Source: Mycoplasmatota bacterium
GTDB taxonomy: Bacteria > Bacillota_I > Bacilli_A > Haloplasmatales > Haloplasmataceae
DNA: 64,000 nucleotides
Assembly (NCBI GenBank): GCA_018394295.1
Contig: CP074574.1
Span: 1-64,000 of the forward strand
Direction: 5' to 3'
The first letter of the stretch is position 1. Each line of letters starts with the position of its first letter. Shown one piece after another: positions 46,226 to 53,649 of the stretch. The translations under genes were made by a program, and so were the position numbers. The notes beneath the pieces are model-generated. The model made no database searches. It saw only the letters and a program-made list of their open reading frames with translations, and was not told the origin of the DNA.

Positions 46226-46624
46226 ATGAAAATATATAATAATAATCATTCAGTATTCTCATTGAATTATCATTTGATTTTAGTAATTAAATATCGTAGA
46301 GATGTAATTGATATGGAAATTTCAAGAAGATTAAAAGAAATATTCAATTATATTAGTGTGAATTATAATATTGTATTAGTCGAATGGAATCATGAATATG
46401 ATCATGTACATGTTTTGTTTAGAGCAAATCCTAATTCTCAACTATCAAAGTTTATAAATGCTTACAAAAGTGCTAGTAGTAGATTAATCAAGAAAGAATT
46501 CCCTTCGATTAAGAAAAGATTATGGAAAGAATCTTTTTGGAGCAAAACCTTTTGTTTATTGTCTACCGGTGGGGTTACTACTGATATTGTTAAAAGCTAC
46601 ATTCAAAATCAAAGGAAGGAGTGA
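46226..46624 (+). CDS. tnpA: TnpA Y1 (HUH) transposase of IS200/IS605
   Basis: A 132-residue enzyme that cuts and rejoins single-stranded element ends. The HUH metal motif is DHVHVLF near residue 60-66 and the catalytic tyrosine lies in KSYIQNQ near 125. Length is normal and no frame damage is visible, so the element could be active and could supply TnpA for the shorter copies nearby. Confidence 0.92.
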
Positions 46625-46628
46625 TATT

Positions 46629-47702
46629 ATGTTAAAAGCTTATAAATACCGAATATATCCAAATAAAGAACAAATTGAATATTTAAGTAAAGTTTTTGGG
46701 TGTACCAGGTTTATTTATAATAAAATGTTATCAGATAAAATCGAATATTATATACAATATAAGAAAACATTAAAAACTACACCAGCTCAATACAAAAATG
46801 AATTTACCTGGTTAAAAGAAGTCGATAGTTTAGCTTTGGCTAATGAACAACTTCATTTAGAAAAAGCTTATAAAAACTTCTTTCGTGAACCTAAAATAGG
46901 TTTTCCTAAATTCAAAAGCAAAAAAACACATTATCACTCATTCACAACAAATAATCAAAACGGAACAGTTTCAATTAAAGATGGATACCTTAAAATTCCT
47001 AAATTAAAATCATTAATTAAAGTAAAACAACATCGCTTATTTTTAGGAATTATAAAATCATGTACCGTTTCTCAAGTACCTAGTGGTAAATATTTTGTAT
47101 CAGTATTAGTTGATACAGAAAATAAGCAATTACCTAAAAGTAATAATAAGGTAGGACTTGATCTAGGGCTTAAAGAATTCTTAATAACATCCAATGGAAT
47201 TAAGATAGATAATCCCAAATACCTTAGAAAAACAGAACGAAAATTAATTAAAACACAAAGGGAATTATCAAGAAAAAAGAAAGGCTCTAATAACTGGAAT
47301 AAAACAAGAATTAAAGTAGCAAAGCTCCATGAGAAGATAAATAATCAAAGAAATGATTTTTTACATAAATTAAGTACTCAAATCATTCGTGAAAACCAAA
47401 CGATTGTAATTGAGGATCTTAAAGTAAAAAATATGTTGCATAATCACCGATTAGCTAAAGCAATTAGCGAAGTATCATGGTACAAATTTAGAATACTATT
47501 AGAATACAAAGCTACATGGTATGGAAGAGAATTAATCATAGCACCTAAGTATTATGCTAGTAGCCAAATTTGCTCTTGTTGTGGATATCAAAATAAAGAA
47601 GTTAAGAAATTAAATATACGTTCATGGATATGTCCTAAATGCCATACACAGCATGATCGTGATATAAACGCTAGTATTAATTTACTAAAATTAGCAATAT
47701 AA
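46629..47702 (+). CDS. tnpB: TnpB RNA-guided nuclease
   Basis: The 357-residue protein starts at ATG 46629 behind AAGGAGTG. An earlier in-frame start overlaps tnpA. The RuvC triad is visible as Asp in GLDLGLKEF (near 178), Glu in IVIEDLK (near 261) and Asp in HDRDINAS (near 344). The zinc finger is CSCCGY...CPKC. All key residues are present. The 3' end runs into the omega-RNA. Confidence 0.93.
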
Positions 47703-47817
47703 TTGCATATGTTTTGAGGTTGGAGCAACCTTTTGAGCTTAGAGATACTGGCTACATTAGTAGTCTTGACTAAGAAGCTCCTACTTCTATAAGTAGGGGT
47801 AGTTCACTCAATATTGG
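47700..47817 (+). ncRNA. Omega-RNA (right-end RNA) of the tnpB element
   Basis: After the tnpB stop come the hairpin GGTTG-GAG-CAACC and the terminal hairpin CTCCTACTTC...AAGTAGGGG ending GTAGTTCAC. In this family the guide is read from flanking DNA directly after the right end, here starting TCAATATTGG. The sequence is about 90% identical by eye to the orphan copy at 49489-49628. Confidence 0.8.
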
Positions 47818-48334: not shown

Positions 48335-48363
48335 TTGACACATTTCAACATTTAATATATAAT
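48335..48363 (+). promoter_or_regulatory. Perfect consensus promoter of the structured RNA
   Basis: TTGACA (48335-48340), exactly 17 bp, TATAAT (48358-48363). With 1490-1518 it is one of only two perfect consensus promoters found in the window. Confidence 0.88.
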
Positions 48364-48369
48364 GTACTT

Positions 48370-48500
48370 AGTAAAATGTAATAGAGTAGTAGAGGATAGA
48401 AATTTTCGGTGGCTATCATGCACCTTTAGGTGTCAAGTGTAGGACTTATGTCTGATAAGATGTTGGGGTACCGACCAACCTATTACTCATTTGTTATATG
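48370..48500 (+). ncRNA. Structured RNA with closing stem, four hairpins and loop-loop pseudoknot
   Basis: P1 pairs GAGTAGTAG (48384-48392) with CTATTACTC (48480-48488). Inside are GATAG/CTATC (48395/48413), GCACC/GGTGT (48420/48429), CTTAT/ATAAG (48445/48455) and GTTGG/CCAAC (48462/48475). The loop of the first hairpin (TCGGT, 48406-48410) is complementary to the loop of the last (ACCGA, 48470-48474). A perfect promoter precedes it and an intrinsic terminator follows, so an abundant stand-alone RNA of about 165 nt is likely. No known family matched from memory. The terminator does not visibly compete with P1, which argues against a simple riboswitch. Confidence 0.7.
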
Positions 48501-48540
48501 GCTTGTGGTGTTAATTTTATTAACATCATAAGCTTTTTTT
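48501..48540 (+). terminator. Strong terminator between structured RNA and the 48562 gene
   Basis: A 15-bp stem (GCTTGTGGTGTTAAT with ATTAACATCATAAGC) with a 3-nt loop and T7. Confidence 0.9.
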
Positions 48541-48561
48541 GAAAGTTATGGGGTAAGTATT

Positions 48562-48936
48562 ATGAAAAAAGAATTGTTAGGTGTATTAACAGAAAAAATT
48601 GCAAAAAAATTCAATTTAGAAGAACATAGTGGAAAAAATATTGTGATCTATGATGATAAAAAAATATACATTGAAAAACACAAAGATGAATACAAGGATG
48701 AAGAAAGTTATAATAATACAGTAAATAACCTTTCTTCTATAATAACTTCAGCAGATTTTGTTTATTATAATGAGAGTACTTTAGGATTAGAATTTTTTAA
48801 ATACATTGATGAAGATGTGTTAGTAGCTATTCGTGTGGCTAATGCAAAAGAATTAAAAGTAAGAAGTGTTTATCCAGTATCAAAAACAAAAATTCAAAAC
48901 AGAAAAAAGAAACTAAAATCTATTGTACATCACTAA
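48562..48936 (+). CDS. Possible PBECR-like (barnase/EndoU/colicin/RelE-like) nuclease
   Basis: The 124-residue protein lies 21 nt after the terminator, with a modest GGGGTAAG ribosome site. The pattern IYIEKHKDEYKDEE, then SADFVYYNESTLGLEFFKYI, then LVAIRVANAKELKVRSVYPV resembles the small phage-borne nuclease-like PBECR domains. The family call is from memory and tentative. Organisation (strong promoter, structured RNA, terminator, small possible RNase) copies that of type III toxin-antitoxin loci. Read-through past the terminator would supply the low toxin level. Confidence 0.5.
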   Translation: MKKELLGVLTEKIAKKFNLEEHSGKNIVIYDDKKIYIEKHKDEYKDEESYNNTVNNLSSIITSADFVYYNESTLGLEFFKYIDEDVLVAIRVANAKELKVRSVYPVSKTKIQNRKKKLKSIVHH

Positions 48937-49490: not shown

Positions 49491-49628
49491 TATTAATTAA
49501 TTTACTTAAATTAGCAATATAATTGCCATATATTTTGAGGTTGGAACAACCTTTTGAGCTTAGAGATACTGACTACATTAGTGGTCTTGACTAAGAAGCT
49601 CCTACTTCTATAAGTAGGGGTAGTTCAC
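49489..49628 (+). mobile_element. Orphan omega-RNA / right-end copy of the IS200/IS605 element
   Basis: About 140 bp match 47676-47817: the last tnpB codons (TTAGCAATATAA), the GGTTG/CAACC hairpin, and the terminal CTCCTACTTC hairpin ending GTAGTTCAC. There is no tnpB body or left end. Flanking DNA that would act as guide begins TAAAAGGAAGCC. It could be a solo right end or a TnpB-less guide RNA gene served in trans. Confidence 0.8.
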
Positions 49629-49666
49629 TAAAAGGAAGCCTGTTAATAAATATAGACTTCTTTTTA

Positions 49667-52606: not shown

Positions 52607-52641
52607 GCATTATAATTTAATAATATTATGAGGTGAAAAGA

Positions 52642-53649
52642 ATGAACGGTTATAAAATTGGAATAGACTTAGGAACCAAAAATACTCTAGTCTATATAAA
52701 TGGAAGAGGTATTATTTTTAACGAACCTTCAATGGTTGCATTTGATAGGGAAACAAATAAAATGATAGCCATCGGACACAAAGCCAATGATATGTTAGGA
52801 AAAGAACATGGAAAAATAAAAGTAACCAAACCTCTTGAAGGTGGAGTAATAGCTGATCTTAATGCTACGGAAGTAATTTTAGAATCTATCTTTAAAAAAT
52901 TTAAGGACACAAATGTAAATCTTAAACATTCAACATTGCTGTTATGTTGTCCATCAAAAATGACGAGTTCAGAAAGAAAAGCTTTAGAAGATTTAGCTCA
53001 TAAATTAGAAATTAAAGATGTACTTATAGAAAAGGAAGTCAAAGCCGGTGCTATTGGATCAGGTATCGATATATTTATGCCCAAAGGCATTATGATTGTA
53101 GATATAGGTGGAGGTACTACTGATATTGGTGTTCTTTCACTTGGTGATGTAGTAGTACATGACTCAATCCGTATTGCTGGGAATTATATAGATAATGAGA
53201 TTATTAAATATATAAAATATAAATATGGTATGGAAATTGGAAAGCAAACAGCTGAAAAAATAAAAATAGGAATTGGTACACTTAAAAATGAATTAGCTGA
53301 AGATAGAACATATACGTTTTCTGGCAAAAATAGTAATACAAATTTACCAGGTAAAATGATAATTAAACAATCTGAAATAAGAAATATTCTTTTAAAAATA
53401 TTCACTAAAATTACTAATAAGATATTAGATGTATTAAGAAAATTGCCACCGGAATTAGCTGAAGATATATTAGAGGATGGTATTATAATCAATGGTGGGG
53501 GAGCCTTAATTGATGGGGTTATTGATTATTTTGAAAATATAACAAATTTAAAATTTAGATTATCAAAAAACCCTTTGACCTCTATTGCTGAAGGAACAAA
53601 AATTTTATTACAAAATAAAGGTGATTATAGGACAAAGCCCTTGAAATAA
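52642..53649 (+). CDS. MreB-like actin homologue carried on the element
   Basis: The 335-residue protein starts at ATG 52642 behind GAGGTGAAAA. An in-frame GTG at 52633 lies inside the ribosome site. The N-terminus GYKIGIDLGTKNTLVYINGR is a clear MreB signature. VDIGGGTTDIGVLSLGDVV (phosphate 2) and IIINGGGALIDG (adenosine site) are also intact. Length equals chromosomal MreB. No mreC/mreD or rod genes are near. It may alter host shape, guide the transfer machine or act in plasmid positioning beside ParM. Confidence 0.9.
   Translation: MNGYKIGIDLGTKNTLVYINGRGIIFNEPSMVAFDRETNKMIAIGHKANDMLGKEHGKIKVTKPLEGGVIADLNATEVILESIFKKFKDTNVNLKHSTLLLCCPSKMTSSERKALEDLAHKLEIKDVLIEKEVKAGAIGSGIDIFMPKGIMIVDIGGGTTDIGVLSLGDVVVHDSIRIAGNYIDNEIIKYIKYKYGMEIGKQTAEKIKIGIGTLKNELAEDRTYTFSGKNSNTNLPGKMIIKQSEIRNILLKIFTKITNKILDVLRKLPPELAEDILEDGIIINGGGALIDGVIDYFENITNLKFRLSKNPLTSIAEGTKILLQNKGDYRTKPLK

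What the first reader, a model, noticed from the sequence alone, without database searches (positions are those of the whole stretch)
48335..48936. Structured RNA plus small possible nuclease arranged like a type III toxin-antitoxin locus
A perfect consensus promoter drives a roughly 165-nt RNA with a closing stem, four hairpins and a loop-loop pseudoknot (UCGGU/ACCGA). A 15-bp terminator follows, then a 124-residue protein that resembles PBECR nucleases. Type III systems have this order, but the RNA here is a single multi-hairpin fold rather than tandem repeats and the protein is not recognisably ToxN. It could be a new RNA-protein antitoxin type or a new riboswitch-like RNA.
Basis: partly seen in the sequence, partly recalled or inferred. 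Interest (0 to 1): 0.82.

Follow-up and report, generated by a model that had tools for sequence, protein, structure and literature searches.

The report
Skipping-rope RNA partnered with PBECR nuclease
A bacterial plasmid carries a small folded RNA of a family known since 2017 but without a function, next to a gene for a small RNA-cutting toxin-like protein; across hundreds of genomes this kind of protein almost never occurs without that RNA beside it, so the RNA is most likely the toxin's antidote.

Summary
A perfect promoter (48335-48363), a folded RNA with the UCGGU/ACCGA pseudoknot, a terminator (48500-48534) and a 124-aa protein are all present. The RNA is not new: it is Rfam RF02924 skipping-rope, a family with no function in the papers I could search. 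The protein is Pfam PF18812, PBECR3. The link between them appears undescribed. Stand-alone PBECR genes found by protein search alone have a skipping-rope RNA beside them in 66 of 69 genome and viral loci, and in 13 of 14 further plasmid and phage loci (the exception is cut by the record end). In an unbiased sample of 291 Clostridia genomes it is 26 of 28, against 1 of 6 for PBECR domains inside long frames. The RNA lies upstream, downstream or convergent, has its own promoter, covaries strongly and shows no antisense match to the nuclease mRNA. It often occurs without the nuclease; the reverse is rare, and broken nucleases keep an intact RNA. Best reading: a type III-like toxin-antitoxin module in which a trans-acting RNA binds and blocks a RelE/colicin-like RNase. 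It is not ToxIN: different toxin family, RNA unit and usual gene order. The window's own nuclease has Tyr at a near-invariant His.

The parts
48335..48363 (+). sigma-70-type promoter of the RNA, TTGACA-17-TATAAT
   Evidence: 12 of 12 matches
48385..48487 (+). skipping-rope RNA (Rfam RF02924), subtype with an extra hairpin between the third and the last conserved stem
   Evidence: 44.8 bits, E 2.3e-07 and 5e-09, gathering score 36.7; fold z = -5.27 for the whole transcript
48406..48410 (+). pseudoknot strand 1, UCGGU in the loop of the first inner hairpin
   Evidence: read from the sequence; the corresponding helix covaries in relatives
48470..48474 (+). pseudoknot strand 2, ACCGA in the loop of the last hairpin
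   Evidence: as above
48500..48541 (+). intrinsic terminator between RNA and nuclease gene
   Evidence: 16-pair stem followed by a T run
48562..48936 (+). 124-aa PBECR3 nuclease-like protein, predicted toxin; Tyr36 replaces the near-invariant first His, second His (40) kept
   Evidence: PF18812 53.2 bits; AF2 pLDDT 86, pTM 0.79; column counts

Best explanation
The locus is one copy of a widespread two-part module: a small stand-alone PBECR-fold endoribonuclease (toxin) and a skipping-rope RNA (antitoxin). Steps with direct sequence support: the RNA and the stand-alone nuclease gene are kept together; the RNA is a separate transcription unit with its own promoter and terminator; its four-stem fold and pseudoknot are under selection. 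Inferred steps: the RNA binds the nuclease in trans and blocks its active site; the strong promoter keeps the RNA in excess; in the window the terminator lets only a little read-through reach the nuclease gene; when transcription stops or the plasmid is lost, the RNA decays and the freed nuclease cuts cellular RNA, giving plasmid maintenance or phage defence. The many nuclease-free RNA copies in phages and genomes would be leftover antitoxins or counter-defence copies.
For: PBECR loci found by protein alone: RF02924 beside 13 of 14 plasmid/phage loci (one below cut-off; the exception is cut by the record end) and beside the plasmid locus L048; 66 of 69 genome/viral loci. Unbiased 291 Clostridia genomes: 26 of 28 small PBECR3 hits over cut-off against 1 of 6 inside long frames, Fisher p = 4e-4, plus a weak RNA match at the expected place in G646. 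392 phylum genomes: every over-cut-off stand-alone PBECR3 has the RNA, the three in 2,371-2,599-aa frames do not. RNA upstream, downstream or convergent. Own promoter: 60% have at least 10 of 12 matches against 3.3% shuffled. Covariation 96.9% of cells paired, pseudoknot 99.6%. Asymmetry: RNA without nuclease is common, nuclease without RNA rare; broken or truncated nuclease beside intact RNA in three loci. Nuclease fold nearest RelE/HigB RNases. Precedent: the abiF motif RNA, from the same 2017 survey, is an RNA antitoxin that binds AbiF (PMC12373285).
Against: No experiment shows toxicity, binding or neutralisation. About half of the RNAs in Clostridia genomes (24 of 54) and most in viral contigs have no PBECR nearby, so the RNA may have another role. 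L091 has an intact PBECR with no RNA found in its incomplete genome, and G465 has none. Foldseek matches to RNases are individually not significant (E 0.03 or worse). The window nuclease has Tyr at a near-invariant His and may be inactive.
Confidence: 0.72

Rival explanations
1. The RNA controls nuclease expression: a cis-acting leader, riboswitch or attenuator, or an antisense RNA of type I toxin-antitoxin kind.
For: In the window and in L035 the RNA and a terminator precede the nuclease gene, which would allow attenuation.
Against: In nearly all other loci the RNA is downstream or convergent with its own promoter. Cognate RNA-mRNA duplexes are not stronger than mismatched ones (36 of 64, p = 0.32). 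Rfam files it as sRNA.
Confidence: 0.1
2. The RNA is a cofactor or guide and the pair is an active RNA-protein effector, or the nuclease processes the RNA.
For: Tight pairing and strong conservation of unpaired nucleotides would also be expected of an obligatory cofactor.
Against: RNA copies without nuclease are common and broken nucleases keep an intact RNA, which a pure cofactor would not predict; no variable guide segment was seen.
Confidence: 0.1
3. Hitch-hiking: an independent mobile-element sRNA that shares an insertion spot with PBECR genes.
For: Both sit in phages, plasmids and mobile regions, and the RNA often occurs alone in varied phage contexts with no recurrent neighbour.
Against: The pairing holds across Bacillota, Fusobacteriota, Spirochaetota and weakly Pseudomonadota, with three relative orientations; PBECR domains inside long proteins mostly lack it.
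Confidence: 0.05

Closest known systems
Skipping-rope RNA, Rfam RF02924 (from the Weinberg et al. 2017 survey, by my own knowledge; pseudoknot shown in the Rfam 14 paper, PMC7779021)
   Same: The window RNA is a member over the gathering score, with the same stems and pseudoknot.
   Different: No partner or function is given in the papers I could search; here it is tied to PBECR nucleases. The 2017 paper was not held, so any remark there is unread.
PBECR domains (Iyer et al. 2017, PMC5512222; Pfam PF18812, PF18810)
   Same: The protein belongs to PBECR3; that paper notes solo versions in phages and predicts RNase activity.
   Different: The passages I read there make no mention of an RNA partner; they discuss mRNA or CRISPR RNA as possible targets.
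Type III toxin-antitoxin systems ToxIN, CptIN, TenpIN, AbiQ
   Same: RNase-like toxin plus structured RNA; in the window the same promoter-RNA-terminator-toxin order.
   Different: Toxin not of ToxN family by Pfam or fold search; usually one 70-100-nt unit instead of 34-50-nt tandem repeats; RNA mostly downstream or convergent.
AbiF with the abiF-motif RNA RCd22 (PMC12373285)
   Same: A structured RNA from the same 2017 survey, shown to neutralise a toxic protein in trans by direct binding.
   Different: Unrelated toxin (Abi_2/AbiD/F family) and an unrelated, smaller RNA motif present twice.

Membership tests
Skipping-rope RNA RF02924 | Covariance-model score over the gathering threshold | tested here: met
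   44.8 bits against 36.7
Skipping-rope RNA RF02924 | Loop-loop pseudoknot with covariation | tested here: met
   Helix 3 in relatives 99.6% paired with both-side changes; window has UCGGU/ACCGA by direct reading
PBECR3 (PF18812) | Profile score over the curated cut-off | tested here: met
   53.2 bits against 30
[quoted passage not shown]
   First His is Tyr36 in the window (His in 75 of 77 sequences), second His kept (76 of 77); a Ser in the RSVYP motif is present. Which His is catalytic is not established
Type III toxin-antitoxin (ToxIN-like) | Toxin homologous to ToxN/AbiQ/CptN/TenpN | tested here: not met
   Pfam gives only PBECR families over cut-off; fold search lists RelE/HigB-type RNases and no ToxN among the rows shown
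Type III toxin-antitoxin (ToxIN-like) | Antitoxin of tandem short repeats upstream of the toxin | tested here: not met
   Window has one unit upstream; most relatives one unit downstream; two or three copies in L093, L126, L131 and G676
Type III toxin-antitoxin (functional sense) | RNA neutralises the toxin by direct binding | not testable with these tools
   Needs experiment
Riboswitch or cis-regulatory RNA | Constant position in the 5' leader of the regulated gene | tested here: not met
   RNA downstream on the same strand or convergent in most loci
Type I toxin-antitoxin | Antisense complementarity to the toxin mRNA | tested here: not met
   Cognate duplexes no stronger than mismatched, p = 0.32 (start region only)
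tRNA | Recognised as tRNA by sequence and structure | tested here: not met
   ARAGORN finds no tRNA at the RNA sites; no RF00005 hit on the RNA

The most novel reading that the evidence does not exclude
Skipping-rope RNAs are a separate class of RNA antitoxin that works as a tRNA-shaped decoy. The four-way junction has the linker lengths of a tRNA (2, 1, 4 and 0 nt in at least 77 of 79 sequences), with a conserved GG in loop 2 pairing to CC in loop 4, as the D and T loops do in tRNA. The RNA would fill the RNA-binding groove of a BECR nuclease, a fold whose relatives cut tRNA, and phages would carry nuclease-free copies as counter-defence. The tRNA resemblance is topological only, and the linker count relies on an invariant C-G pair that gives no covariation evidence.
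Probability: 0.25. Interest if true: 0.92.

Novelty: new variant of a known kind. Interest (0 to 1): 0.8.

Why it matters
It gives a widespread RNA family of unknown function a concrete protein partner and a directly testable role, and it proposes RNA control for a toxin-like nuclease family. If right, RNA antitoxins that act on the protein extend well beyond ToxN-like toxins, in both toxin family and RNA architecture, and phages carry the antidote RNA on its own.

Tried and rejected
Riboswitch or cis-leader: rejected on position and orientation. Type I antisense: no cognate complementarity. ToxN homology: none. tRNA: not recognised. Known defence system: no PADLOC match. NCBIfam names nothing useful. 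PDB sequence search gives no convincing relative. RNA-protein distance correlation (Mantel r = 0.73) is not used as evidence of binding, because tight linkage alone would give it. Orphan RNAs in viral contigs have no recurrent neighbour gene. Literature: only two papers hold 'skipping-rope RNA' and two hold 'PBECR' in the library, none linking them; the original 2017 paper is not held.

Full report
WHAT IS THERE. The window lies on a 97.9-kb contig of a 3.29-Mb two-contig genome from a small order (8 genomes held). At 48335-48363 there is a 12-of-12 promoter, at 48500-48534 a terminator, and between them an RNA that folds far better than shuffled sequence (z = -5.27). Rfam identifies it as RF02924 skipping-rope, 44.8 bits. 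The following 124-aa protein is PF18812 PBECR3, 53.2 bits. The same genome has a second pair on its other, 3.2-Mb contig: RNA at C1:1499651 (50.3 bits) and a truncated PBECR3 about 500 nt downstream.

THE PAIR IS CONSERVED. In 392 genomes of the phylum, 12 hold the RNA and 8 hold PBECR3 over the cut-off. Every over-cut-off stand-alone PBECR3 (6 loci) lies within about 80-520 nt of a skipping-rope RNA on the same strand. The three other hits are domains in frames of 2,371-2,599 aa, and those genomes have no RNA match. I then selected by protein only. The window protein against plasmids gave three small plasmids, and the one read, an S. thermophilus plasmid, has the RNA 29 nt after the gene. Fourteen further plasmid and phage loci gave 13 with the RNA, one of them below the gathering score; the exception ends at the stop codon of the gene. 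A scan of 84,980 species genomes and of IMG/VR with a PBECR alignment gave 69 loci; 66 have the RNA beside the gene (one of these RNAs is cut by a contig end), usually 21-157 nt after the stop codon. The three without: L121, with a transposase right after the gene in a fragment that runs to the contig end; L087, whose genome has the RNA on another contig; and L091, none found in an incomplete genome. In an unbiased sample of 291 Clostridia genomes searched for each family separately, 26 of 28 small PBECR3 hits have the RNA within 200 nt, against 1 of 6 hits inside frames over 200 aa (Fisher p = 4e-4). A weaker RNA match at the expected place in G646 makes it 27 of 28.

THE RNA ACTS IN TRANS. 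It lies upstream (window, L035), downstream on the same strand (most) or convergent (L049 pTA1060, L050, L062, weakly L060). Of 91 RNAs, 60% have a promoter of at least 10 of 12 matches within 70 nt upstream, against 3.3% of shuffles, and a hairpin with a T run commonly follows. There is no antisense match to the nuclease start region.

THE FOLD IS UNDER SELECTION. In 80 distinct sequences 96.9% of cells are paired (shuffled 73.8, best slid version 43.3), 21 of 26 pairs have changes on both sides, and the pseudoknot, which was not used in the alignment, is 99.6% paired with both-side changes. Junction linkers are 2, 1, 4 and 0 nt in at least 77 of 79, the arrangement of a tRNA; no tRNA program recognises it. 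I treat that as a lead only.

ASYMMETRY. In Clostridia 30 of 54 RNAs have a PBECR3 nearby. In viral contigs sampled by RNA pattern, 20 of 101 pattern hits do (about 80 of the loci were confirmed by the covariance model), and the rest have varied neighbours. Nucleases without the RNA are rare. Where one partner is damaged it is the nuclease: G313, G290 and the host's own second locus keep an intact RNA beside a broken or truncated PBECR. This is what an antitoxin predicts. One phage-like locus (L041) has the RNA convergent to a minor capsid protein whose last 110 residues weakly match PBECR (E = 0.015). Tandem RNA copies exist (L093, L126, L131; three in G676).

THE PROTEIN. AlphaFold models are confident (window pLDDT 86; L096 pLDDT 92). 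The best PDB matches of the second model are mostly HigB, RelE and relatives, E 0.03-0.2, none significant alone; ToxN is not among the rows shown. Two histidines are near-invariant (75 and 76 of 77); the window has Tyr at the first, so this copy may be weak or inactive, which does not affect the family-level conclusion.

NOVELTY. Both parts are known families. Papers held mention skipping-rope RNA only as a fold example and as a phage ncRNA (PMC7779021, PMC8501573), and PBECR as a predicted RNase with solo forms (PMC5512222). No link was found, but the original 2017 paper and most subscription journals are not held. The close precedent is the abiF motif, from the same survey, shown to act as a type III-like antitoxin (PMC12373285).

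Noticed in passing
window 46226-47810 and 49500-49632: IS200/IS605-like pair (TnpA-like 46226-46624, TnpB-like 46569-47702, by eye) whose 3' end sequence recurs alone at about 49500-49632, downstream of the nuclease: the module sits between a full element and a remnant end.
   Followed up: no
window 52633-53649: MreB/Mbl homologue (PF06723, 361.7 bits) encoded on the plasmid-sized contig.
   Followed up: no
L041 6647-8424: Skipping-rope RNA convergent to a phage minor capsid protein (PF06152) whose C-terminus weakly matches PBECR (E = 0.015): the RNA may also pair with capsid-borne PBECR domains.
   Followed up: partly
L237 (G676:C70:15355-15680): Three skipping-rope RNAs in a row after an ORF that resembles PBECR by eye (HPDDY...DPDF).
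   Followed up: partly
L048 3011-3892, L049 1033-1950, L062 1062-1964; L058 and L059 1742-1984: A roughly 300-aa protein (weak helix-turn-helix matches in L049 and L062) or an 80-aa helix-turn-helix-like protein lies directly upstream of PBECR in several plasmids: possible regulator in the same operon.
   Followed up: partly
L036, L033, L034: Several skipping-rope RNAs lie near defence or toxin-antitoxin-like genes as read by eye (SIR2-like, AbiEi/AbiEii-like, RelBE-like).
   Followed up: no
Plasmids NZ_CP045599.1, NZ_CP139122.1, NZ_MF807212.1: PBECR3 proteins annotated as 'dihydroorotate dehydrogenase'; elsewhere as 'spbA protein' or 'plasmid-related protein': misleading names for this family.
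   Followed up: yes
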